Origin: a virus
Virus record (IMG/VR): IMGVR_UViG_3300027736_000024
Span: 62,001-126,000 of that record
Strand: one strand, 5' to 3'
Length of the DNA: 64,000 bases
In this document: piece by piece, positions 4,272-61,597 of the stretch
How the letters are laid out: the number at the start of each line of letters is the position of its first letter
Position numbering within the stretch: the first letter of the stretch is position 1
Made by a program: the position numbers and the translations under genes
The notes under the pieces: generated by a model
Told to the model about the DNA's origin: nothing
The model's database searches: none
The model's input: the letters and a program-made list of their open reading frames with translations, nothing else

Positions 4272-4871
4272 ATGGACATTAGTAAACTTAAAGGGCATAT
4301 TCCTGAGACAGTTATAGCTCAAATACCTGATACTGCGGCAAAATTTGAACTTAATACACCATTAAGATTAGCTCATTTTCTTGCTCAATGTGGTCATGAG
4401 TCTGGTGGATTCAAATTAGTTAAAGAAAACTTAAACTATGGAGCAAAAGGTCTCCGTGGTATATTTGGAAAATACTTCCCAACAGATGCAAAAGCTTTAC
4501 AATATGAAAGAAAGCCTGAAAAAATTGCAAATTTGGTTTATGGAAATAGGATGGGCAATGGACCAGAATCATCAGGAGATGGTTTTAAATATTGTGGCCG
4601 CGGCTTTATTCAATTAACAGGTAAAGATAATTATACCTCTTTCGGTAAGGCTATCAATGAAGATATTGTAGCTAATCCTCAATTAGTTGCAGACAAATAT
4701 CCTTTATTATCTGCTGCATGGTTTTTTCATAAAAATGGTTTACATAAAATTGCAGATAAAGGTGCTACTGATCAAGTAGTTACAGAAGTAACCAAAAGAG
4801 TTAACGGAGGTACAATAGGACTCCCAGATCGCATAAAACACTTTAAAGAATATTACGAATTGCTAAAGTAA
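4272..4871 (+). CDS. Endolysin, GH19 chitinase/lysozyme family
   Basis: Cleaves the glycan strands of peptidoglycan at lysis. It has the GH19 core: FLAQCGHESGGF with the catalytic Glu, YGNRMGNG, and GRGFIQLTGKDNY. At 199 residues it is essentially one catalytic domain with no signal peptide or wall-binding module, so it needs a holin. A holin-like gene follows 47 bases downstream. A GATATTTAT motif lies 31 bases before the ATG and may be part of a phage promoter. Confidence 0.95.
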   Translation: MDISKLKGHIPETVIAQIPDTAAKFELNTPLRLAHFLAQCGHESGGFKLVKENLNYGAKGLRGIFGKYFPTDAKALQYERKPEKIANLVYGNRMGNGPESSGDGFKYCGRGFIQLTGKDNYTSFGKAINEDIVANPQLVADKYPLLSAAWFFHKNGLHKIADKGATDQVVTEVTKRVNGGTIGLPDRIKHFKEYYELLK

Positions 4872-4918
4872 TAGGTTTCATAAAGGTTGTATATTTTTTA
4901 AAATTAAAAATAGACCTT

Positions 4919-5161
4919 ATGAAAAAGTTTTTTTCTGACTTATTTAATGATAATAATTCTATCAATGAAAAAGCCGTTATTGGTTTTTTAGCATTTTGCA
5001 TGATGTGTATATTTGCAATTGCCGATATAGTAACAGGTACTATGGATAAACCATTATTAGTAAATGAGTTTATTTATGATTCATTTAAAATATTAACAAT
5101 TGCGTGCTTTGGTATAGCTTCTGTAGATAAGTTTATTAACAAAAAGAAAGATAATAATTAA
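4919..5161 (+). CDS. Holin-like two-span membrane protein
   Basis: 80 residues with two hydrophobic segments (about 18-38 and 54-68) and a Lys-rich C-terminus, the size and topology of small holins. It lies directly after the GH19 endolysin gene, so releasing that enzyme through the inner membrane is the likely job. I do not recognise a named holin family; an antiholin or another membrane accessory cannot be excluded. Confidence 0.65.
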   Translation: MKKFFSDLFNDNNSINEKAVIGFLAFCMMCIFAIADIVTGTMDKPLLVNEFIYDSFKILTIACFGIASVDKFINKKKDNN

Positions 5162-5172
5162 AAACCAATATT

Positions 5173-5421
5173 ATGGAAAAGATCCCAACAAAAAAAGCAG
5201 AATCTCTAATTAGTGCCTTAAAAGGAAAAAAACCAGTTGTTATCATTGCTTGTGTAGTAATCTTTATTGTAGGTATATTTGCAGTTAAAAAAGGCTACAT
5301 TGCAGAAGACATGTTAAATGTTGATACTATTGTATCATTTGTTAATGGAGCTCTTGGAAGTGACTCAACTAAAGCTGCTGTTGATACTGCTGCTCATGTA
5401 ATTGATAGCTTACCTAAATAA
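5173..5421 (+). CDS. Small single-pass membrane protein in the lysis cassette
   Basis: 82 residues: a basic N-terminus (KKAESLISALKGKK), one strong membrane span (VVIIACVVIFIVGIFAV, about 22-38) and an amphipathic, Ala-rich C-terminal part. It begins 12 bases after the holin-like gene. An antiholin or second holin component is possible; the family is not recognised. Confidence 0.65.
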   Translation: MEKIPTKKAESLISALKGKKPVVIIACVVIFIVGIFAVKKGYIAEDMLNVDTIVSFVNGALGSDSTKAAVDTAAHVIDSLPK

Positions 5422-5427
5422 TTAAGT

Positions 5428-5787
5428 ATGAAAAAATTAATTATTTTATTGTGCTTATGTTTAAGTATTTTTGTGGTTGATGCTCAAACATCAAAATTAA
5501 AACCTAAATTAATTGAAGGATCTATTATGGGATTCAGTAATGGTAAAGGTAAGGTCGGAATTGGAGGAGTATCATCTTCATTTTTAAAAGTAAATATTTC
5601 TAAAAAATTATCAATAGGAACTGCATTAGCTCCTATTCTTTGGTTTGACACTGAAAAACATAATCACAGTTATGGTACAGCAGGTTTTGCTATAAGAGCA
5701 GATTATAAAAAAATTAGCCTAGGTTGTAATTTATTAACAATTGCCGGTGTTGATACAAAATTTGTAGGCATCGGTGTAAAATTATAA
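5428..5787 (+). CDS. Exported small beta-rich protein
   Basis: 119 residues with a clear signal peptide (basic start, LIILLCLCLSIFVV, cut after VDA) followed by Gly-rich alternating strands, as in a small outer-membrane or periplasmic beta-sheet protein. Its place in the lysis cassette suggests outer-membrane disruption, for example a spanin-like role, but no family is recognised. Confidence 0.65.
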   Translation: MKKLIILLCLCLSIFVVDAQTSKLKPKLIEGSIMGFSNGKGKVGIGGVSSSFLKVNISKKLSIGTALAPILWFDTEKHNHSYGTAGFAIRADYKKISLGCNLLTIAGVDTKFVGIGVKL

Positions 5788-5794
5788 TACCCCT

Positions 5795-6199
5795 ATGTCA
5801 CAGATTTCGCAACAAGAAAAAACAGCTGAATTAGAAAAATCAATAGCCATTGATAAAGGTAAATCGGATCTAATAGAAAAATTAGTATTTATTTTATTCC
5901 CTATATGTGTATCAGCAATCGGATGGTTACTTACTCAAGTAAATAGTTTGAGTGATAATATTACAGTCCTTAACAATAAAGTTAATATTGTAGTAAATGC
6001 TGAAAATAAAGCAATACCGCCTCAAGGTACTACTATAGAACTTGAACAATTAAGAGCTAGTGCTATGCAAGCTAGAGCTGATATGAAAATGGATATAAAT
6101 GAAAAAATAACTGCTATTCAAATAGGAGCAATGCAAGAAAGAGCCGATATTAAAGCTCGTTTAAGTGTAGTTGAATCTAGATTAAATAATCACAAGTAA
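5795..6199 (+). CDS. Membrane-anchored coiled-coil protein
   Basis: 134 residues: a short soluble N-terminus, one membrane span at about 28-48 (LVFILFPICVSAIGWLL), then a long heptad-rich helix. This is the layout of an inner-membrane spanin (i-spanin) or of a scaffold for a membrane complex. It is the fourth membrane or export protein in a row after the endolysin. Confidence 0.65.
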   Translation: MSQISQQEKTAELEKSIAIDKGKSDLIEKLVFILFPICVSAIGWLLTQVNSLSDNITVLNNKVNIVVNAENKAIPPQGTTIELEQLRASAMQARADMKMDINEKITAIQIGAMQERADIKARLSVVESRLNNHK

Positions 6200-6207
6200 T
6201 AAAATTA

Positions 6208-6894
6208 ATGAACCAACAATTAAGTATAATTATTCCATGTAAAAATGAAGGCAAAGGAATAATTGAAGTACTTAAGTTAATTTTATCTCAAATTGATTGT
6301 AGAATAATAGTAGTGGACTCCTCAACTGAGGAGTCTTCTATTTTATTATTAACAGAATATCAATCAATACATAAAAATATAGAAATAATTAAAGGCGGTT
6401 TACCTGCTATTGCTCGAAATAATGGAGCTAAATTAGTAACAACTCCATATATTCTATTTTTAGATGCGGATATATATCCATATGAGAATGCAATTAAAAA
6501 TTGTATTAGAACTGCTGTTAAAGGTAAGTATGATTTAGTTACTTGTAAATTTACCACTGATAAAAAATATAACTGGGTTTATAGAATTTTTGATATATTT
6601 CAATGGTATAGTTCAAAAACAAAACCTTTTGCTTTAGGTGGCTTTATGCTATTTAAAACAGAAACATTTAATAAATTAAAAGGATTTAATGAAGAAGATA
6701 AAATTGCCGAGGATTACCATCTCAGTTCCAAAATTAAACCTAATCGTTTTAAAATCACAAACGATTTCGTTTATACTTCAAGTAGAAGATTTGATAAAAA
6801 AGGTATATGGTATATGATTAAATTAGCATGGAAATCCTGGCTAAATAGAAATAATGATGAATTTTTTAAAAAAGATTTTAATTACTGGAAATGA
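6208..6894 (+). CDS. Family 2 glycosyltransferase
   Basis: GT-A fold. Residues 4-11 (LSIIIPCKNEG) form the nucleotide-binding start, and the LFLDADIY segment near residue 90 holds the DxD metal-binding motif. A C-terminal aromatic/basic helix (WYMIKLAWKSWLNRN) may touch the membrane. At 228 residues it is small and catalytic only. It overlaps the LpxH-like gene by 4 bases, suggesting that the two act on the same lipid-linked or surface sugar. The acceptor is unknown. Confidence 0.9.
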   Translation: MNQQLSIIIPCKNEGKGIIEVLKLILSQIDCRIIVVDSSTEESSILLLTEYQSIHKNIEIIKGGLPAIARNNGAKLVTTPYILFLDADIYPYENAIKNCIRTAVKGKYDLVTCKFTTDKKYNWVYRIFDIFQWYSSKTKPFALGGFMLFKTETFNKLKGFNEEDKIAEDYHLSSKIKPNRFKITNDFVYTSSRRFDKKGIWYMIKLAWKSWLNRNNDEFFKKDFNYWK

Positions 6895-7637
6895 AAAATT
6901 ACAAAGCAATAATAGTTTCTGATTTGCATTTAGGTACTAAGGATTCTAAAGCTGAAGAATTTTTAGAATTTTTAGAAAATCATCCAACAGATCTACTAAT
7001 TTTAAATGGTGATATAATTGATGGTTGGGCTTTAAATAGAGGAAGTAAGTGGAAAAAACAACATACTAAAGTATTAGGTAAAATTTTAAAACTATCTAAT
7101 AAAATACAAGTAATTTGGATAAGAGGTAATCATGACGAATTTATTCAAGAATTTATAGGATCTCATTTTGGAGGTATAGAATTTAGAGAAGACTATAAAA
7201 TTGAATATGCTGAGCATATAGAATATGATAATTGGGAAAAAAAATGTTTTTATGTTTTCCATGGCGATGTTATTGATGTGTTTATAACAAAGTATACTTG
7301 GTTAGCTAAAATTGGTGCTGTTGGATATGATGTAGCATTAACTTTAAATCGTTGGTATAACAAATATCGTAAATGGCGTAAACTTCCATATCAATCAATA
7401 TCTAAAAAAATAAAAAATAGCGTTAAAACAGCAACTAGTTACATTAACGATTTTGAAGTAACAGCATTAAAAATGGCAGAAAAGAAAGGCTGTGACGGAG
7501 TTATTTGTGGCCATATACACCAACCAGAAGACAGAACTATAAATGGTAAAAGATATTTAAATTCTGGGGATTGGGTAGAAAATATGAGTGCTATATTAAT
7601 AGATACTTATGGGCGGGTATATTTATATAAAAATTAG
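6891..7637 (+). CDS. Calcineurin-like phosphoesterase, LpxH (UDP-2,3-diacylglucosamine hydrolase)-like
   Basis: A metallophosphoesterase with the full two-metal set: SDLHLG, NGDIIDGW, RGNHD, VFHGDVID and CGHIH. The spacing and length (248 residues) fit the LpxH-like branch, whose bacterial members cleave UDP-diacylglucosamine to lipid X in lipid A synthesis, better than generic phosphatases. Translational coupling to a GT2 gene suggests envelope-lipid or lipid-sugar remodelling. The exact substrate is not shown by the sequence; other pyrophosphates remain possible. Confidence 0.85.
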   Translation: MKNYKAIIVSDLHLGTKDSKAEEFLEFLENHPTDLLILNGDIIDGWALNRGSKWKKQHTKVLGKILKLSNKIQVIWIRGNHDEFIQEFIGSHFGGIEFREDYKIEYAEHIEYDNWEKKCFYVFHGDVIDVFITKYTWLAKIGAVGYDVALTLNRWYNKYRKWRKLPYQSISKKIKNSVKTATSYINDFEVTALKMAEKKGCDGVICGHIHQPEDRTINGKRYLNSGDWVENMSAILIDTYGRVYLYKN

Positions 7638-7640
7638 TTT

Positions 7641-7760
7641 ATGATTAAAGTACTAGACACTTTATTTAATTTTAATAGTGGTAAAAAAGTCAACTTCGAA
7701 CAAGGATTCTTTCTTGGAATAATAACATTCACACTCTTATTATTTCTTTTTATGGTATAA
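7641..7760 (+). CDS. 39-residue membrane peptide
   Basis: Starts three bases after the LpxH-like stop and encodes a short soluble part and one C-terminal membrane span (LGIITFTLLLFLFMV). The position right after a stop and the uninterrupted frame make it plausible as a real small protein. Function unknown. Confidence 0.5.
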   Translation: MIKVLDTLFNFNSGKKVNFEQGFFLGIITFTLLLFLFMV

Positions 7761-7762
7761 AA

Positions 7763-7770
7763 TAATTTTG
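7763..7770 (+). promoter_or_regulatory. Bacteroidota-type -7 box before the tmRNA
   Basis: TAATTTTG matches the TAnnTTTG -7 element of Bacteroidota primary-sigma promoters exactly and lies 37 bases upstream of the tmRNA 5' end. The -33 region is T-rich (around 7742) but has no perfect TTTG. This suggests that the host RNA polymerase makes the tmRNA. Confidence 0.5.
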
Positions 7771-7792
7771 TATATTTATACTATATAAAAAA

Positions 7793-7802
7793 GTTCTTTA
7801 AC
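7793..7802 (+). promoter_or_regulatory. boxA-like antitermination sequence
   Basis: GTTCTTTAAC resembles the boxA element (E. coli TGCTCTTTAACA) that NusB/S10 bind on stable-RNA transcripts. It lies just before the tmRNA. A related GTTCTTTGAC is at 8974-8983 after the second tRNA-like gene, and an exact inverted copy, GTTAAAGAAC, is at 9271-9280. Confidence 0.4.
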
Positions 7803-7806
7803 TTAT

Positions 7807-8202
7807 GGGGATAACCGGTATCGATCTGAATGATGAGATAATACCACATGCAGGCGTTTGGTAGAGTCGCCTTAGAAAACTGCAAACAATAACTGACGAA
7901 ATGTCAACAATGACCTTCGAAGACTTAATGTCTTTCGTAGGCGCTGATTACGCTCTAGCAGCCTAGTCCGCATCGGGTGGTAGAGAACCTAGGAACAGAA
8001 CACAACAGCGAGTCATACGCTAAAGAGATGGCATCCGGACGCATATTGCGAGCCGTAGTTTTCTTGATAGTCATAAAATCAAGTGGTGGAAACGACCATA
8101 AAGGTCAGCCCTTACTGATCAAAAGCAATTTAGATCTAAGCATGTGAGACGTTGGTGTTATTATCACTTTTAGAGACGTGGGTTCGAATCCCACTATCTC
8201 CA
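7807..8202 (+). ncRNA. ssrA: Transfer-messenger RNA (tmRNA)
   Basis: Rescues stalled ribosomes and tags the nascent chain for proteolysis. The tRNA-like ends pair as GGGGATA (7807-7813) with TATCTCC (8195-8201); A8202 is the discriminator and CCA is not encoded. The T arm is GTGGG-TTCGAAT-CCCAC and the 5' domain has the GGTATCGATCTG signature. The tag frame starts at Gly codon GGC 7940 and reads GADYALAA, stopping at TAG 7964-7966; TCGTA before it is the expected resume context. Total length 396 nt. A phage-borne tmRNA with a shortened Gly-first tag ending in the ClpXP degron ALAA is unusual. Confidence 0.95.
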
Positions 8203-8271
8203 CTTAAAATATATATTTTTATTATTTTAAATTTATTTGTACATTTAATTAATAATCAAAACAAATAAAAA

Positions 8272-48013: not shown

Positions 48014-48907
48014 ATGAATCTAGGATACGCTTGCATAAACATGACGCTAGGCAAAGCTGTGACTACGAATCGTGGTATGGTTAAAAAAACATTTCTCGCC
48101 AAGGGCCCGGACTGGGTATCTGAGTTGGCACTCGCCAATTCTCGGGACATCATCAAAATTCTAGAGTGGAATAGACTTAGAGGTATAAAACTATTTCGCT
48201 TGACATCTGCCCTTATCCCTTGGGGAGATAGTCTAGATCTTACACAATTAAAAGACTACGAAGAGATCCGGTCTGAACTTAAAAAGGCAGGTGACTTTGC
48301 AAGAGAACACGGTATCCGGATCACTACGCATCCTGGTCCATTCAATGTACTTCTTTCACCAAATGAAGCTGTAGTTGAAAAGACTATTCAAGATCTGGAA
48401 ATGCATGGCAAGATATTTGATATGATAGGACTTGATAAGTCACCATATAACAAGATCAATATACATTGTAATGGTGTTTATGGAGATAAGCCGGCAGCCA
48501 TGGATAGATTTTGCCTAAATTTTTCTCGTCTATCCGAATCAGTTAGATCAAGGCTTACTGTAGAGAACGATGATAAGGCAAGTATGTATTCTGTTATAGA
48601 CCTTATGTACATACACAAAAAGATTGGAACACCTATTGTATTTGATTATCACCACCATGGTTTTTGTACTGGTGATCTTACTGAGGAGGAGGCTTTAAAG
48701 TTGGCAGCTGAGACTTGGCCTGAAGGGATTAAGCAGCTTGTTCACTATTCAGAATCAAAAGCTCTACATGAAGGGAATACCAAACTTAAACCTCAAGCAC
48801 ATTCAGACTATATTAATTCACTTCCGAATACCTATGGTCTAGATCTAGATATTATGATTGAGGCAAAAGCAAAAGAGTTAGCAATCTTACCATTCATTAA
48901 AAAATAA
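48014..48907 (+). CDS. uvsE: UV-damage endonuclease (UvsE/UvdE)
   Basis: 297 residues, TIM-barrel endonuclease that nicks DNA 5' of pyrimidine dimers. The start NLGYACINMTL, RLTSALIPWG, ITTHPGPFNVL, INIHCNGVYGDK, LTVENDDKAS, FDYHHH and VHYSES carry the metal-binding His/Glu/Asp set in family order. The first 150 bases use GC-richer codons than the rest. It repairs UV damage in phage or host DNA, useful for a phage of surface waters. Confidence 0.93.
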   Translation: MNLGYACINMTLGKAVTTNRGMVKKTFLAKGPDWVSELALANSRDIIKILEWNRLRGIKLFRLTSALIPWGDSLDLTQLKDYEEIRSELKKAGDFAREHGIRITTHPGPFNVLLSPNEAVVEKTIQDLEMHGKIFDMIGLDKSPYNKINIHCNGVYGDKPAAMDRFCLNFSRLSESVRSRLTVENDDKASMYSVIDLMYIHKKIGTPIVFDYHHHGFCTGDLTEEEALKLAAETWPEGIKQLVHYSESKALHEGNTKLKPQAHSDYINSLPNTYGLDLDIMIEAKAKELAILPFIKK

Positions 48908-49078: not shown

Positions 49079-49414
49079 ATGAACAAAGAAGAACAAAAAA
49101 AAATTATTATAGAAGTTATGGATGCGGATGCTAAAGATGGATTGTACGAAAAAGAAGATAAAACATTTAAACAAAAAAGTAAATGGACCAAAGTGAATAA
49201 CAAACAACAAACAGCAGTAGAATGGTTATTCACTCAATTATATGAAAAGTTTGAAATGAAAGGTGATGGAGAAAAGATGAATAAAATACTTAACAAAGCT
49301 AAAGAAATGGAGAAAGAGCAGATAGTAAATGCTTATGAATGTGGTTGGATTAATGGTGATTTGAAGAAAGCTCCGCGTTTTGGTAAGGATTATTATAATA
49401 CTTTAAATAAATAA
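49079..49414 (+). CDS. Helical phage protein, unknown function
   Basis: 111 residues, Lys/Glu-rich. KQQTAVEWLFTQLYEKF and AKEMEKEQIVNAYECGW are recurrent elements in small Bacteroidota-phage proteins of unknown role. Related in style to 47123 and 49469. Confidence 0.65.
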   Translation: MNKEEQKKIIIEVMDADAKDGLYEKEDKTFKQKSKWTKVNNKQQTAVEWLFTQLYEKFEMKGDGEKMNKILNKAKEMEKEQIVNAYECGWINGDLKKAPRFGKDYYNTLNK

Positions 49415-50794: not shown

Positions 50795-51090
50795 CACGAG
50801 TAGAACAAAAAGGAAATAAGGAGAGACTTATACTAAAGGAATTAATTGATAAAATGTTTGAAATAGCAGGCCATCCTCTAAAGTTTGAAGATGTAGAAGG
50901 TAGAACTGATAATTGGTTTCAACAATACACTATGACTGAAGCTCAAAATGAGGAGTGGCGAAATTGGGGTACTAAATTTCTAAGTAAGAAACGTCGTTTT
51001 GGTATGAAGTTAGCGGATCGTGAAATGAGAATGTTAGATTTGTATTGTGGATTGAGTATATCGGATAGTAGATTTGCAAAAGAATTATGA
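50791..51090 (+). CDS. Small phage protein, unknown function
   Basis: 99 residues, helical. FEIAGHPLKFEDVEGRTDNWFQQYTMTE and KLADREMRMLDLYCGLSI fit a style of small phage protein without known function. 4-base overlaps on both sides. Confidence 0.65.
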   Translation: MTRVEQKGNKERLILKELIDKMFEIAGHPLKFEDVEGRTDNWFQQYTMTEAQNEEWRNWGTKFLSKKRRFGMKLADREMRMLDLYCGLSISDSRFAKEL

Positions 51091-51704
51091 TAATACACAC
51101 AATGTGGATAGGATCCGAGATCCCTATTAAATATCATAGTAACTTAGATAAATTCAGGATGTTAAATCCCGGCTTTCAACACATGCATTGGGGAGAGAAT
51201 GATATAATCAGTATTTTTAAATATTTTAATCTAATAGAATTATATAATTCAATGCCTAGTTTTATAACTAAATTCAATTTGGCAAAGTATGCAATACTAG
51301 ATAAATTCGGTGGGATATTCACAGACTTAGATATACAGTGGAAAAAATCATTTATTGAAATTATGAATGATCAGGAGTTTAATGATATAGATATATTATT
51401 AACACATCCAGTAGATACAGCACATTATTATATAAATGATCAAGCCGTTAATCTTTTAGATGATCCATTTATTATAGCCAGACCAAACCTACTTAGCCAA
51501 TGTCTTGACTTTAGATTTAAAAGAGAGTTAAGAATAGATCCCGAAACAAAAGCCGTCCATAAAGCAGAACCTATAGGTCCTTTCTTATTAACAGAGTGGA
51601 TTTATGCTAATCAAATAAAGCATAGAGCATTTAGCCAAACTGCATTTTTAAGTCTAAATGGTTTTTACGGATACCACGAACAATTAGATCTATGGAATAA
51701 ATAA
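51087..51704 (+). CDS. GT32-like glycosyltransferase (DXD sugar-binding)
   Basis: 205 residues. IIHTMWIGSEIP start and AKYAILDKFGGIFTDLDIQW with the DxD metal motif after a GG turn are the GT32/capsular-polysaccharide DXD family signature. It is a glycosyltransferase outside the main sugar cluster and lies immediately before the MKLSKIL cassette, so it might glycosylate something packaged or injected; this is inference. Confidence 0.8.
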   Translation: MIIHTMWIGSEIPIKYHSNLDKFRMLNPGFQHMHWGENDIISIFKYFNLIELYNSMPSFITKFNLAKYAILDKFGGIFTDLDIQWKKSFIEIMNDQEFNDIDILLTHPVDTAHYYINDQAVNLLDDPFIIARPNLLSQCLDFRFKRELRIDPETKAVHKAEPIGPFLLTEWIYANQIKHRAFSQTAFLSLNGFYGYHEQLDLWNK

Positions 51705-51707
51705 AAA

Positions 51708-51724
51708 GATATTTATATAAAAGA
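51708..51724 (+). promoter_or_regulatory. GATATTTATATAAAAGA motif, copy 3
   Basis: Exact 17-base copy, starting 23 bases before the ATG at 51731. It probably begins transcription of the four-gene MKL(S/T)KIL cassette. Confidence 0.6.
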
Positions 51725-51730
51725 ATCTCA

Positions 51731-52423
51731 ATGAAACTCAGTAAGATACTAGAAGGAGAATATGGAAATATATTATTTGGAGATAAAGATGATCCTGCAA
51801 AATTTGCTAAAATGCAAGGCGTGAAACCTGGCTCAGAACCAGATTTACCGGAAGAAAAAAAACTATTACTTCTATTAAAAAAATGGACAGTAAATCCTGC
51901 ACATTCTATACAAGATCTTTATAAAATTAGAGGGAAGCTAAAATCATTAGCAAACGAATATCCAAAAATATTAAAACCTAGTACTCCAAATGGTACTATA
52001 ATTTATAGAGGATTAACAAGTACAAATCCCCAAATAGAATCTCAAGTAAAAGCTTCAAATCCAGAAGATTGGATAAAAGCAGGTCGTTTATATATTTTAA
52101 AAACTCCCATAAAATATATTCCAAGAAGCGATATTCAGTCTTGGTCAACAAGGATGGAAACAGGCATGTACTCCTTTGGGCAAGGAGGAATGTTAATATC
52201 TAAGCAAAACGAAGAATACATGATGAATCAAGAAGCGCTATCTATACTATATCCATTGAGTGAAGACGAGATACTTCACTTTGGAAAAAACTATGATCAA
52301 AATGTATATTTTGCAGGTATTGACATATCAAATACAATAAGAAAATATAGTAAAAAATTAGCAAATGTAAAATCTGTATCTGACAGAAGTAAAGATTTGG
52401 ATATGAAATCTATAATTAAATAA
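51731..52423 (+). CDS. Putative ADP-ribosyltransferase with capsid-targeting-like leader
   Basis: 230 residues. The leader MKLSKILEG ends in I-L-E before Gly, an (I/L)xE site as used by T4-type prohead protease. The body has the R-S-E set of arginine-type ADP-ribosyltransferases in order: Arg93 in IYRGL, SWST at 137-140, and the ExE pair Glu178/Glu180 in SEDEILHFGK. In T4, Alt has the same design (internal head protein, injected, ADP-ribosylates host RNA polymerase). Target unknown. First gene of a four-gene cassette. Confidence 0.78.
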   Translation: MKLSKILEGEYGNILFGDKDDPAKFAKMQGVKPGSEPDLPEEKKLLLLLKKWTVNPAHSIQDLYKIRGKLKSLANEYPKILKPSTPNGTIIYRGLTSTNPQIESQVKASNPEDWIKAGRLYILKTPIKYIPRSDIQSWSTRMETGMYSFGQGGMLISKQNEEYMMNQEALSILYPLSEDEILHFGKNYDQNVYFAGIDISNTIRKYSKKLANVKSVSDRSKDLDMKSIIK

Positions 52424-52433
52424 AATAATCTCA

Positions 52434-53597
52434 ATGAAACTCAGTAAAATATTAGAATCTATCCTAGATGAATTAAACGTCCCAAAACCTGAGGATGCAT
52501 ATAAATTCTATAAAATAACAAAAAAGGATCTAGGATATGGTACCATGCACACTTATGTGTATGAAAATGTAAATGGAGATCTAATGGAAATCTCTAACAT
52601 GGTAACAAAACATCCAAAAGAACCTGGTAAATCAATATACTTGGCTTTTAAGAAATATGAAGGACCTGGATCTGATGAGGAAGAATACGATAATGAAGAA
52701 GAAGAGGAAAGGAAATATTCTGAGAAGACAGGAGCCGGTGACCTGATTAAGGTATTGGCAACTGTGGTACAGTCTGTAAAGAATACCATGAATAAAGAGG
52801 GTGGTGAAAATAAGATATATGCCATAAAGTTTAGCCCATCAGATAATAAAAGGGCTAACATATATCTACACTATATAAAAACCCTGTTCCCTGACTTCAA
52901 AGAAGAGAAAGGAGTGGAGGCTAAATTTACAACCTTTGTTAATAAGAATTTTAAGCCAAAGGTAATCTCAGAAATAGGAGATGCATCAGCTGAAGGATAT
53001 AGTCTGTCAAAACCAAATATCAAAGGACCAATAAATAAGGCATTAGACAAGATAAACAGTAGCGAAAGCAAAAGAAAATACGGAGGAGAGGAACCATTCA
53101 AAGTAAGATACACTGCCTCTGTAGGAACCAATAAATACCTTATAGACATATCAGGAATGGTAAGTAATGTAACTCCAGGCACTGTCCCAAGATTTACTTA
53201 TCTGTTTAATCCAGATGGAACTAGAAAACCAGGAAAGCTAGATATAAGAGTAGACTTTGATATGAAAAGGGATTCTAAAAAAGATGCCTTTACTTCAACA
53301 GAACTAAACGAACAGTACAAAGTATTATCCGCAGTATTTAATTCTGTTATTGACTTTGTAAACCAAACAGAAGCCACTACACCAGTAGATCAGATACTTA
53401 TGTATCCATCAAACGATAAAGGAACAGATACTGCAAGCAATTCTAAGAGAGGAAGATTCTATATGGTTTATATACAAAAGAATATCTCTAAACTTCCCGA
53501 TCCAAGCATGTGGGACGTAAACCTTAACATGAGTGATAACTACATAGACTTAAGTAGAATCCCTCCAATGCCAACAAAGAAAACAAAGAAGAAATAA
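52434..53597 (+). CDS. Internal-protein candidate with MKLSKIL leader and duplicated SEIGDAS-type domain
   Basis: 387 residues. The leader MKLSKILES is followed by a first domain (20-160) containing TGAGDLIKVLATVVQSVK and IKTLFP. At 177-185 VISEIGDAS appears, the same string that follows the leader of the next protein, then a second related domain. The protein looks like two leader-plus-domain units fused, with the inner leader partly kept. Acidic stretch at 80-93 (DEEEYDNEEEEE). Function unknown; Lys-rich end TKKTKKK. Confidence 0.72.
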   Translation: MKLSKILESILDELNVPKPEDAYKFYKITKKDLGYGTMHTYVYENVNGDLMEISNMVTKHPKEPGKSIYLAFKKYEGPGSDEEEYDNEEEEERKYSEKTGAGDLIKVLATVVQSVKNTMNKEGGENKIYAIKFSPSDNKRANIYLHYIKTLFPDFKEEKGVEAKFTTFVNKNFKPKVISEIGDASAEGYSLSKPNIKGPINKALDKINSSESKRKYGGEEPFKVRYTASVGTNKYLIDISGMVSNVTPGTVPRFTYLFNPDGTRKPGKLDIRVDFDMKRDSKKDAFTSTELNEQYKVLSAVFNSVIDFVNQTEATTPVDQILMYPSNDKGTDTASNSKRGRFYMVYIQKNISKLPDPSMWDVNLNMSDNYIDLSRIPPMPTKKTKKK

Positions 53598-54080
53598 ATG
53601 AAACTAACCAAGATACTAAAGGAAGTAATATCAGAGATAGGAGACGCATCTAAAGAACCATACCCATTTAAAAAAGATATGGATGATATGGATGAAAGAA
53701 AATACACATTTTTTACAGACTCTGGATTTGAATATGAAGTTAGGGTAGAAACTATAGGAGGAAGTCCTATGGAACCTGTAATAGCAAGGGTAGGATTTGG
53801 TGTAATAGATGGGACTGATGATATATCTTATGTGAAACAGACAGGAGAGAATGATGTATATAAAATAATGGCAACAGTAACTGCAATAGTAAAGCAGGAT
53901 CTTAAATCTAATGATGCTGATGTTATAGAGTTTTCTTCAAGTAAAAGAAGGAATAAGGGTGTGGATGAAGATCCAATGTCTAATGTAAGAACACAACTCT
54001 ACTCAAGATATATTAAAGGCCAATTCCCTAATGCTGAGGTTCAATTTGATGATTATGGAGATGTAAGGGTAAGATTATAA
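53598..54080 (+). CDS. Internal-protein candidate with MKLTKIL leader, SEIGDAS domain
   Basis: 160 residues. Leader MKLTKILKEVISEIGDAS with two possible (I/L)xE sites (ILKE has L-K-E; ISE). The body matches the first domain of the preceding protein: TGENDVYKIMATVTAIVKQ and YIKGQFP correspond to TGAGDLIKVLATVVQSVK and YIKTLFP. So the two are paralogues. Begins directly after the previous stop. Function unknown. Confidence 0.72.
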   Translation: MKLTKILKEVISEIGDASKEPYPFKKDMDDMDERKYTFFTDSGFEYEVRVETIGGSPMEPVIARVGFGVIDGTDDISYVKQTGENDVYKIMATVTAIVKQDLKSNDADVIEFSSSKRRNKGVDEDPMSNVRTQLYSRYIKGQFPNAEVQFDDYGDVRVRL

Positions 54081-54089
54081 TAAATAATA

Positions 54090-54665
54090 ATGAAACTAAC
54101 TAAGATATTAGAAGGAATACTAAAAGAGAATCTACTCCAGTTTTATCATGGATCTACAGATAAGAATCTAGCAGGTAAGAATGGAATACATGTAGGATCT
54201 AAACTTGCAGCAACTCAAGCACTCCAAGCAAGAATAGGAGTTCCTGCTGAAGGTGAATGGGATGGTACAAGAGAATACGGTAAGACTAAACTAGCAGGAA
54301 AGAAAACCTTAGATAGAAGAGAAAAGGAATTAGGATATTTCTTAAAAACAGGATATAATACTCAATCTGAAGTACCTGAAGTACCTGAAGAAGATTATTA
54401 CCCTGAAGACAGAGGTAAATTGCCAACTTATTCGGATGGTACACATATAAGTTTAGACTCTAAACCTATAATATTTCCTGTGAAGATCAAAGGACCGATG
54501 AATAATACCGTAAGAAACCCGAAGACAGATATGGCAGCAAACTCACTCATGATGAGAGGACTAAGGAAAGGAAATGCCCGAAACGGATTCTATTATATAA
54601 ATGATGGAGAAGATGAAGGATCAATATCTGCTGTAGTACCAAATAAAGATTGGTTAAGTTATTAA
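54090..54665 (+). CDS. Possible second ADP-ribosyltransferase-fold protein with MKLTKIL leader
   Basis: 191 residues. Leader MKLTKILEGILKE with I-L-E/G. Then FYHGSTDKNLAGKNGIHVGSKLA, where YHGS and the IHVGS segment are arranged as in H-Y-type ADP-ribosyltransferase relatives (His-Gly donor loop and later strand). I see no certain catalytic Glu, so activity is uncertain. The rest is charged and ends SAVVPNKDWLSY. Last gene of the cassette. Confidence 0.65.
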   Translation: MKLTKILEGILKENLLQFYHGSTDKNLAGKNGIHVGSKLAATQALQARIGVPAEGEWDGTREYGKTKLAGKKTLDRREKELGYFLKTGYNTQSEVPEVPEEDYYPEDRGKLPTYSDGTHISLDSKPIIFPVKIKGPMNNTVRNPKTDMAANSLMMRGLRKGNARNGFYYINDGEDEGSISAVVPNKDWLSY

Positions 54666-59821: not shown

Positions 59822-60073
59822 ATGAGTAAGAAATTTAACTATGAAGTATACCTGAGAAACAATCCTCTACTTTCAGAAGCTTCGGGAGAAGACGAAACAA
59901 GCTCCGAGTGGCAAGAGGGCAGGATGATGATGATAGGTGGAGATAAAATAGGCAGCGCAGTAGAAGATCTATTACAAAATAAGTACGCTCCTGAAGACAT
60001 TTTAAAACTGTGTCAAAAGATCGTAGATCAAAAACAGAAGCGCATGCAAGATTATCAAAACAAATTAAAGTAG
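59822..60073 (+). CDS. Acidic helical protein, virion-associated candidate
   Basis: 83 residues. The N-terminus FNYEVYLRNNPLLSEASGED contains an L-S-E/A site of the prohead-protease type and resembles N-termini recurrent among T4-like phage structural proteins. Remaining part is charged and helical (ILKLCQKIVDQKQKRMQ). Function unknown. Confidence 0.6.
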   Translation: MSKKFNYEVYLRNNPLLSEASGEDETSSEWQEGRMMMIGGDKIGSAVEDLLQNKYAPEDILKLCQKIVDQKQKRMQDYQNKLK

Positions 60074-60124: not shown

Positions 60125-61597
60125 ATGGCAGAAAATTTTGATATTGCAAAATTCCTTAAAGAGAACGCTTTGGGTTCTTATGGAATCTTAGGTAATTATG
60201 TAGACCTTAAACCTCTTAAAGAAGATGATGGATCAGGTTTTTCTGGAAAGATCAGTTTAGATTATTATGATCATCCAAGTATCACTAACTCATTTCAAAA
60301 AAGAGCAGTTAAAGCATTTCAGAAGTACATAGCATCTGAATTTAATGGCACTGCTACTGTATTAAAAGATTCTTTTGATGAGATCATTTTCCAATTATCA
60401 GGTCTTCAAGGAGTTTCTTCTATCGAAGATGTTATAAGCGCATACAAAAAAATGAGAGCCGACGAAATGAATAAAGATTTTCTAGATTCAGGTGGTCCTT
60501 TTTCAATTCTAGCCTCTTGGATGGTATCTAAACCAGAAAAATATGTTACTGATGATTCTGATGATGATAAAGGTTGGGGTAATGATGACGATTCTGAGAA
60601 CAAGAGTTCTTATGTCACTGATTGGTCTGACGACGAAAAAGGTTGGGGCGATGATGAATTTATAGTAGAAAAAAAAAGTGAAAGCAAGGATAAAAAAGTA
60701 GATGTTTATAATGCTGATGAGATTATTTACATGGGAGAAGAACCACTAATGGTGGATAAAAAAACTACTATCAAAAAAGGAGACGCCTTAGATTCAGATA
60801 AGTTAGTAGATGATGACACTAAATATAGAAGAGCCATACTCAGTGTCGATGGTCCACAGTTTAAATACAAAAATCAAATGTATATTTTATATGATATAGA
60901 TCCAGAAGATGATCGTTATGGTTTTGATGACGATGATGATTATGAATCAGGAGGAAGAAGCATTCATTTGACTAAATCATTAGATGAAAAGAAAGAAGAC
61001 CTTGGTGGTTGGGATGGTAATAAAAAGTATAATCAATATAATGGTCAATATGATGATGAATTTGGGCCTGCTATTGCCAACGAAAATGTAGAACAAGAAG
61101 GATTTGATCGTATGATGGGTCTTATAGATCAATCAGTTGTATCTAAACTTCCACTTCTAAAAAAGGCTGTAGATAAAGCTAGATCTAAAGGACTAAGTGA
61201 TGATGCTATATTCAATATGCTATCTAGTAATTCTTTAGTTAGTAAATCAATCGGTGATTTAATTGATGATGGATTTGATTCTCAAGATATTGTAGATTTT
61301 TTCGCTACTGATTTTAATATGATGGAAGAAGGCGAAGGTGAATATATAAGTGCAAAAAACTTTGATTATATGTCGGATGATCAATTAGATGCCGCCGAAG
61401 CATCAGGAGATCTTAAACCAAGTACAGATTCGATTGGTCCAAATGAAGATGTGGATACAGATGTTGATAAAATGAAAGTGTGGGGAGTATATCATAGCAT
61501 ACTAGAATTTTTGAGAGATAAAATAAGTACTGATAAATTAAATCAGAGTGAGGTTGATCAATTAAGAACAAAGTTAGAAGACTTCTTTAAACGATAA
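60125..61597 (+). CDS. Large acidic protein, virion-associated candidate
   Basis: 490 residues, strongly acidic. N-terminus FDIAKFLKENALGSYG includes an L-K-E/N site and matches in style the N-terminus of the preceding protein. Residues 140-180 hold two near-copies of an acidic repeat (VTDDSDDDKGWG and VTDWSDDEKGWG). A late DDG/FDSQDIVDFF part is helical. It could be a head-associated or internal protein; no enzyme motif is visible. The run of two such genes is followed by a strong terminator. Confidence 0.65.
   Translation: MAENFDIAKFLKENALGSYGILGNYVDLKPLKEDDGSGFSGKISLDYYDHPSITNSFQKRAVKAFQKYIASEFNGTATVLKDSFDEIIFQLSGLQGVSSIEDVISAYKKMRADEMNKDFLDSGGPFSILASWMVSKPEKYVTDDSDDDKGWGNDDDSENKSSYVTDWSDDEKGWGDDEFIVEKKSESKDKKVDVYNADEIIYMGEEPLMVDKKTTIKKGDALDSDKLVDDDTKYRRAILSVDGPQFKYKNQMYILYDIDPEDDRYGFDDDDDYESGGRSIHLTKSLDEKKEDLGGWDGNKKYNQYNGQYDDEFGPAIANENVEQEGFDRMMGLIDQSVVSKLPLLKKAVDKARSKGLSDDAIFNMLSSNSLVSKSIGDLIDDGFDSQDIVDFFATDFNMMEEGEGEYISAKNFDYMSDDQLDAAEASGDLKPSTDSIGPNEDVDTDVDKMKVWGVYHSILEFLRDKISTDKLNQSEVDQLRTKLEDFFKR

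What the first reader, a model, noticed from the sequence alone, without database searches (positions are those of the whole stretch)
51708..54665. Four-gene cassette with a shared MKL(S/T)KIL leader: candidate capsid-targeted, injected effector proteins
Four adjacent genes start MKLSKILEG, MKLSKILES, MKLTKILKE and MKLTKILEG, although their bodies differ (an ADP-ribosyltransferase, two paralogous unknown domains, a possible second ADP-ribosyltransferase). T4 internal proteins share a short capsid-targeting sequence cut by gp21 after (L/I)xE; ILE/G and LKE fit. Conserved leader plus varied body is what an injected-effector set would look like. Alternative: the leader is a cofactor- or complex-binding tag.
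Basis: partly seen in the sequence, partly recalled or inferred. Interest (0 to 1): 0.88.

Follow-up and report, generated by a model that had tools for sequence, protein, structure and literature searches.

The report
Capsid-targeting leader on phage effector genes
An uncultured T4-like phage tags four neighbouring genes with the same short front peptide, and comparison with related phages indicates that this peptide is an address label that loads host-modifying proteins into the virus head and is then cut off, so such labels could be used to find injected phage proteins directly from sequence.

Summary
In detail: genes at 51731-54665 start MKL[ST]KIL, the only ORFs in this 136-kb virus record that do (expected 4e-4). 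In genes 2-4 the leader is 13 residues long and has two (I/L)xE motifs. The record encodes T4-like head genes: portal gp20, Peptidase_S77 prohead protease (gp21), scaffold and gp23. In relatives, bodies of genes 2, 3 and 4 persist while leaders are replaced (MIKLVDLLNE, MNTLQLAKHKANLLKE, MINNWEQFLNE, MKRLKEIIFE, MNKFDNFLFE), most still ending (I/L)xE. A syntenic relative has seven adjacent or nearby genes with its own MIKLxxLLxE-type leader. In five or more other phages an MKLxKILxE leader sits on a conserved protein encoded just after gp21. The gene-4 domain is fused to DUF6934 (genes 2/3) behind a T4-CTS-like leader in a jumbo phage, and lies inside a 3310-aa polyvalent protein. Leader-bearing bodies elsewhere include a confident ADP-ribosyltransferase. 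Best reading: phage-specific capsid-targeting propeptides on an injected-effector cassette, mechanistically like T4 IPI-III and Alt. There is no virion proteomics; ART assignments for genes 1 and 4 remain unproven. New variant of a known kind.

The parts
51709..51716 (+). ATATTTAT, putative late-promoter element 22 nt upstream of gene 1
   Evidence: The word occurs 41 times on the + strand of the record pieces scanned, 22 of them 12-35 nt before an ORF start (tail sheath, head and tail genes); its 55 letter permutations average 2.6. The same 'gatatttatataaaag' stretch precedes cassette genes in relatives. Promoter function inferred.
51731..51754 (+). Leader of gene 1, MKLSKILE (site ILE8|G)
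   Evidence: ortholog in L031 keeps MKLTKILEAEYGN
51731..52423 (+). Gene 1, 230 aa; candidate R-S-E ADP-ribosyltransferase (invariant R93-G, QSW at 136-138, E178-x-E180); no profile match
   Evidence: alignment with a 46% identical ortholog; no Pfam/PHROG/NCBIfam/PDB match
52434..52472 (+). Leader of gene 2, MKLSKILESILDE (sites ILE8|S and LDE13|L)
   Evidence: replaced by MIKLVDLLNE in relative L186, both followed by LNVPxxEDAY
52434..53597 (+). Gene 2, 387 aa, two tandem DUF6934-like domains
   Evidence: PF22028 6.5e-6; alignment A1
52962..52988 (+). Internal VISE180|IGDAS at the boundary of gene 2's two domains, same as the leader/body junction of gene 3: candidate second protease site
   Evidence: a two-domain relative in L031 has SLKE|VGDA at the same boundary
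53598..53636 (+). Leader of gene 3, MKLTKILKEVISE (sites LKE9|V and ISE13|I)
   Evidence: replaced by MNTLQLAKHKANLLKE in L031, both followed by IGDAS
53598..54080 (+). Gene 3, 160 aa, DUF6934 domain, paralog of gene 2
   Evidence: PF22028 7.9e-7, above curated cut-off
54090..54128 (+). Leader of gene 4, MKLTKILEGILKE (sites ILE8|G and LKE13|N)
   Evidence: at least eight different leaders on homologous bodies in other phages
54090..54665 (+). Gene 4, 191 aa; FYHGS...GIHVGT...RIGVPAEGEWDGTREYG domain, ART-like by motif only; also found in polyvalent and jumbo-phage proteins

Best explanation
The leader is a capsid-targeting propeptide. Late in infection the four proteins are made from one late-type operon; the leader (8-13 residues) docks each protein to the prohead core; the phage's gp21-type protease cuts after an (I/L)xE in the leader (and probably at an internal site between gene 2's two domains), freeing the bodies inside the head; they leave with the DNA and act on the new host as early effectors (a likely ADP-ribosyltransferase, two DUF6934 proteins, and a domain shared with polyvalent proteins). 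Shown by sequence: shared leader, gp21/gp23 system, leader replacement with mostly retained (I/L)xE, leader type on a head-core-operon protein, domain links to injected-type proteins. Inferred: packaging, cleavage, injection, enzymatic activity.
For: Shared leader beyond chance. gp20, gp21 (S77), scaffold-like and gp23 genes. Gene-4 bodies 48-92% identical carry MKLTKILE, MINNWEQFLNE, MRLIETTILE, MKLKDIINE, MKRLKEIIFE, MELRKFIATTIREYLNE, MIKLLDLLVE, MNKFDNFLFE; 10 of 11 distinct leaders keep (I/L)xE at residue 7-17 against 22% of other N-termini. Gene-3 and gene-2 bodies likewise: VISE|IGDAS versus LLKE|IGDAS; SILDE|LNVP versus LLNE|LNVP. Syntenic relative G024 has at least seven genes with its own MIKLxxLLxE-type leader. 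MKLxKILxE leader on a conserved protein directly after gp21 in L035, L093, L105/L106, L108, L131, exchanged for FDIRxWxxLNE in L113/L124. N-terminal [ILV]xE[SNAGT] in 34% of ORFs between portal and capsid genes versus 6.6% elsewhere. S77 protease in 8 of 9 gene-4-bearing virus records over 60 kb (G000; others). Gene-4 domain in a 3310-aa protein with LPD38, LPD23, MuF_C and SNF2, and fused to DUF6934 behind MRRIKLYEEFVVQLNE in a 482-kb phage. Leader-sharing bodies elsewhere include ADPrib_exo_Tox (1.5e-14) and GNAT. T4 precedent: CTS, gp21 L/I-X-E, packaged Alt (PMC9026906).
Against: No virion proteomics and no N-terminal data for this phage or any relative. In G000 itself no head-core gene carries the same leader; the nearest is LQKLAGLLKEN. 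(I/L)xE is a short motif. Some gene-3 relatives have TTE or MSE at the second position. Three gene-4 relatives (L146/L170, L165, L167) lack a clear leader. gp23's own likely site is LVIE|S, i.e. V rather than I/L at P3. Structure predictions were too poor to identify genes 1 and 4.
Confidence: 0.78

Rival explanations
1. The leader is an uncleaved docking tag for the prohead core or capsid: the proteins are packaged or structural but the (I/L)xE is part of the docking helix rather than a cut site.
For: Genes 2-4 leaders are amphipathic as helices; in T4 targeting and processing residues overlap and targeting persists without processing (PMC9026906).
Against: Leaders of unrelated sequence mostly keep (I/L)xE next to a conserved body start; the same junction recurs between the two domains of gene 2, where docking is not needed.
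Confidence: 0.1
2. The leader loads the proteins into the tail tube or baseplate rather than the head.
For: In L142/L143 and L145 some leader genes lie among baseplate-like genes.
Against: In other phages the leader type sits on a protein encoded between gp21 and scaffold; the cassette here is far from tail genes; the N-terminal site is enriched in the portal-capsid interval.
Confidence: 0.06
3. The leader is an intracellular complex- or cofactor-binding tag with nothing to do with virions.
For: No direct virion evidence; another family in the same phages (xQTAVEWL small proteins) shares an N-terminus without any (I/L)xE.
Against: Leader type on a head-core-operon protein, phage-specific replacement with retained (I/L)xE, association with S77, polyvalent and jumbo-phage contexts.
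Confidence: 0.04
4. The leaders are leftovers of recent duplication of gene 5' ends, without function.
For: Genes 1 and 2 share a few bases before the ATG.
Against: Leader codons vary mainly at synonymous sites while upstream DNA differs; whole cassettes change leader together in relatives.
Confidence: 0.02

Closest known systems
T4 internal proteins IPI-IPIII with capsid-targeting sequence (CTS), cut by gp21
   Same: Short N-terminal peptide shared by unrelated bodies, ending L/I-x-E; gp21-type protease, gp22-like scaffold and gp23 present; varied bodies (PMC9026906, PMC3012670).
   Different: Leader sequence unrelated (MKLxKIL.. rather than the T4 peptide); larger, enzyme-like bodies; leader exchanged wholesale between related phages; an internal candidate site splits a two-domain protein.
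T4 Alt, head-packaged and injected ADP-ribosyltransferase
   Same: Short N-terminal propeptide removed by gp21 (7 residues in T4; PMC9026906); injected with DNA; candidate ART body in gene 1 and confident ART in a leader-sharing set of L145.
   Different: No detectable sequence similarity to known ART families in genes 1 and 4; not shown to be enzymes.
Polyvalent proteins of phages and conjugative elements (Iyer et al. 2017, PMC5512222)
   Same: The gene-4 domain occurs inside one (LPD38, LPD23, MuF_C, SNF2); proposed to be injected with DNA.
   Different: Here the domain stands alone behind a 13-residue leader instead of in one giant protein.
SPN3US/phiKZ-type ejection proteins with prohead-protease propeptides (PMC5694885, PMC10052503)
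   Same: Many head proteins carry propeptides removed by a phage protease before ejection.
   Different: Different phage lineage and protease; known here only from the abstracts listed and general knowledge, not compared.

Membership tests
T4-type CTS / internal protein system | Phage encodes a gp21-type (Peptidase S77) prohead protease with gp20/gp23-type head | tested here: met
   PF03420 4e-24, Portal_T4 7e-20, Gp23 5e-75
T4-type CTS / internal protein system | Same short N-terminal sequence on proteins with unrelated bodies | tested here: met
T4-type CTS / internal protein system | L/I-x-E cleavage motif at the end of the leader, within about 7-19 residues | tested here: met
   E at 8/9 and 13; mostly retained in replaced leaders
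T4-type CTS / internal protein system | Leader shared with or recognised by prohead core proteins | tested here: inconclusive
   Same leader type on a post-gp21 protein in other phages, not in G000 itself
T4-type CTS / internal protein system | Late expression | tested here: inconclusive
   Shares an ATATTTAT upstream element with structural genes; no transcription data
T4-type CTS / internal protein system | Proteins present in virions, leader removed, bodies injected | not testable with these tools
   needs purified virions
ADP-ribosyltransferase (gene 1) | R / S-T-S / E-x-E motifs in order | tested here: inconclusive
   R93-G, QSW[ST], E178xE180 conserved in a 46% identical ortholog; no profile match; model pLDDT 34
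ADP-ribosyltransferase (gene 4) | Profile or fold match to an ART family | tested here: not met
   no Pfam/NCBIfam/PDB match; low-confidence model without fold match
DUF6934 (genes 2, 3) | Match to PF22028 | tested here: met
   gene 3 29.6 bits above the 27-bit cut-off; gene 2 26.6 bits, just below
Polyvalent proteins (gene-4 domain) | Domain embedded in a giant multidomain protein with LPD domains | tested here: met
   For the homologous domain in L156 (LPD38 5e-28, LPD23 4e-22, MuF_C 8e-23); gene 4 itself is stand-alone

The most novel reading that the evidence does not exclude
T4-like phages, including jumbo phages, each use their own leader 'dialect' as a head address: mobile effector domains move between phages and are re-labelled with the resident leader, so that whole cassettes change leader in concert with the head-core proteins and protease. 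Listing genes that share a phage's leader would then reveal its full set of injected effectors, and some are polyproteins split by the prohead protease between domains.
Probability: 0.5. Interest if true: 0.83.

Novelty: new variant of a known kind. Interest (0 to 1): 0.72.

Why it matters
Injected phage proteins are normally found one at a time by virion proteomics of cultured phages. If the leader is a readable, phage-specific address, the injected proteins of uncultured T4-like phages can be listed from sequence. It would also show that the T4 capsid-targeting arrangement, known mainly from enterobacterial phages, is a widespread modular delivery system that carries ADP-ribosyltransferases, acetyltransferases and polyvalent-protein domains, and it offers ready tags for putting chosen proteins into phage heads.

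Tried and rejected
Similarity of gene 1 to the head-core-region protein at record 1791-2507 (EFEGQYDKVLFSTNDP versus ILEGEYGNILFGDKDDP): only 7/20 identities, single-comparison E 0.027; not used as evidence. Structures of genes 4 and 1: mean pLDDT 56 and 34; fold searches of gene 4 gave nothing. Profile search with the gene-3 family failed for lack of a conserved stretch. tblastn of genes 1-4 against 50,697 phage records: no match. Defence-system models: no match. Signal-peptide reading: leader too short and charged, no hydrophobic core (inspection). Gene 1 versus the confident ART of L145: no significant similarity. Most other hits of the leader DNA pattern in viral contigs were short or unrelated ORFs. 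No paper describing leaders of this kind in such uncultured T4-like phages was found in the open-access library, which is limited.

Full report
What is there. The window is bases 62001-126000 of a 136,126-base virus record. Four adjacent + strand genes (51731-54665) start MKLSKILEG, MKLSKILES, MKLTKILKE and MKLTKILEG. No other ORF of the record does. From N-terminal residue frequencies of 1,115 other phage ORFs, 4e-4 such starts are expected in 186 ORFs. The bodies of gene 1, genes 2/3 and gene 4 have no similarity outside the leader. Genes 2 and 3 both match DUF6934 and align with each other. The leader runs to residue 13 in genes 2-4, with (I/L)xE ending at 8 or 9 and again at 13; in genes 3 and 4 there is no other (I/L)xE in the protein.

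The phage has the machinery. At the other end of the record lie a T4-type portal fragment (record 55-903), a Peptidase_S77 prohead protease (4713-5345), a scaffold-like protein (5488-6537) and gp23 (6479-8206) (the scaffold is named by position and by similarity of its start to the same-position gene in relatives). The protease keeps GELDHP and GISSR across relatives. Mature T4 gp23 aligns so that its start falls near residue 57 of this gp23 (counted from MANLVQS), about five residues from LVIE62|S (and inspection). T4 gp21 cuts after L/I-X-E; T4 leaders (CTS) are 10-19 residues for the IPs and 7 for Alt (PMC9026906).

Leaders are exchanged while bodies stay. Gene 4: relatives 48-92% identical in the body carry MKLIKILE, MINNWEQFLNE, MRLIETTILE, MKLKDIINE, MKRLKEIIFE, MELRKFIATTIREYLNE, MIKLLDLLVE and MNKFDNFLFE. 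Ten of eleven distinct leaders have (I/L)xE with E at residue 7-17, against 22% of other N-termini (roughly 2e-6 by binomial, my calculation). Three relatives (L146/L170, L165, L167) show no clear leader; of these only L165 was among the eleven. Gene 3: MKLTKILKEVISE|IGDAS here, MNTLQLAKHKANLLKE|IGDAS in L031, 58% identical. Gene 2: MKLSKILESILDE|LNVPKPEDAY here, MIKLVDLLNE|LNVPKSEDAY in a full-size relative (G024, 183 kb). In that relative MIKLMSLLNE, MIRLIDLLKE, MIKLIDLLKE, MIKLENIL, MIKLENIA, MIKLVDLLNE and MIKLTTILKE start seven adjacent or nearby genes: the cassette has changed leader as a set. In a pooled scan of 79 loci (some overlapping) 10 groups of three or more unrelated ORFs sharing an N-terminus were found, against 0.7 (maximum 3) when ORFs were dealt out at random; two of these groups are a different, non-(I/L)xE family, and several loci repeat one contig.

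Link to the head. In 80 loci around S77 proteases a conserved protein encoded just after the protease starts MKLKKILKE|S, MKLKKILSE|S, MKLKKILKE|A, MKLKKLIKE|N, MKLRKILEE|S or MIKLSKLLTE|S, and in others FDIREWKNLNE|S or FDIRKWNRLNE|S, with the same body. N-terminal [ILV]xE[SNAGT] occurs in 34% of ORFs between portal and capsid genes and in 6.6% of other ORFs. S77 is found in 8 of the 9 gene-4-bearing virus records above 60 kb, G000 included.

Late expression. ATATTTAT occurs 12-35 nt upstream of 22 ORFs, many of them structural, against a mean of 2.6 for permuted words; one copy lies 22 nt before gene 1 and the element recurs before cassettes of relatives. Promoter function is inferred.

Effector nature. 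The gene-4 domain occurs within a 3310-aa protein with LPD38, LPD23, MuF_C and SNF2 domains, i.e. a polyvalent protein of the kind proposed to be injected (PMC5512222). In a 482-kb phage it is fused to DUF6934 (3e-5, just under the curated cut-off), joining in one protein what is adjacent here, behind MRRIKLYEEFVVQLNE; neighbouring genes there start MKYVKLFEGFLSE, MKRIFSYDSFLNE, MKRIKRFESYISE and MKIKRFNNFINE, close in style to the T4 CTS as I know it. Leader-sharing neighbours in other phages include an ADPrib_exo_Tox protein (1.5e-14, with the leader MKRLNEII, beside the gene-4 relative MKRLKEIIFE in L145) and a GNAT acetyltransferase (MNTLELARLKKHLLQE, L031). Gene 1 has R-G, QSW[ST] and ExE conserved with a 46% identical ortholog, consistent with an R-S-E ADP-ribosyltransferase, but no profile or structure confirms it.

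Candidate polyprotein. Gene 2 has VISE180|IGDAS between its two DUF6934-like halves, the same junction as the leader/body junction of gene 3; a two-domain relative in L031 has SLKE|VGDA at the same place. This suggests that the prohead protease also separates tandem domains.

Verdict. The best reading is a capsid-targeting, protease-removed leader on a cassette of injected effectors: it works like the T4 IP/Alt system, and meets those defining features that sequence can test. Presence in virions, cleavage, injection and activities are untested. The kind of system is known; the leader family, its wholesale exchange between phages, the effector content and the possible polyprotein are new as far as the open-access search here shows.

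Noticed in passing
7807-8205: Phage-encoded tmRNA gene (Rfam RF00023, 72 bits) with an unusually long predicted tag, DEMSTMTFEDLMSFVGADYALAA.
   Followed up: partly
59822-60073 and 60125-61597: Two proteins with a second leader type, MSKKFNYEVYLRNNPLLSE and MAENFDIAKFLKENALG; the same type recurs near terminase and head genes in relatives and in Flavobacterium phage immuto.
   Followed up: partly
whole record, e.g. 51709 and 59795 (window): ATATTTAT element 12-35 nt before many late genes; it resembles the reverse complement of the T4 late promoter TATAAATA, so orientation and sigma factor are open.
   Followed up: partly
48014-48907: UvdE-type UV endonuclease gene (Pfam 9e-62); a glycosyltransferase with DXD motif lies at 51087-51704, directly before the cassette.
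   Followed up: no
11233-34413: Long run of sugar-metabolism and glycosyltransferase-like genes, apparently a phage-borne glycan cluster; judged from N-termini only.
   Followed up: no
L031:2862-8066; also window 49079-49414: A family of small proteins sharing xQTAVEWL near the N-terminus; a shared N-terminus without any (I/L)xE, useful as a contrast to the leader genes.
   Followed up: partly
L144:1784-8522: 482-kb phage with a run of about eight adjacent genes sharing MKxIKxFxxFLxE-like leaders: a likely large injected-effector island.
   Followed up: partly
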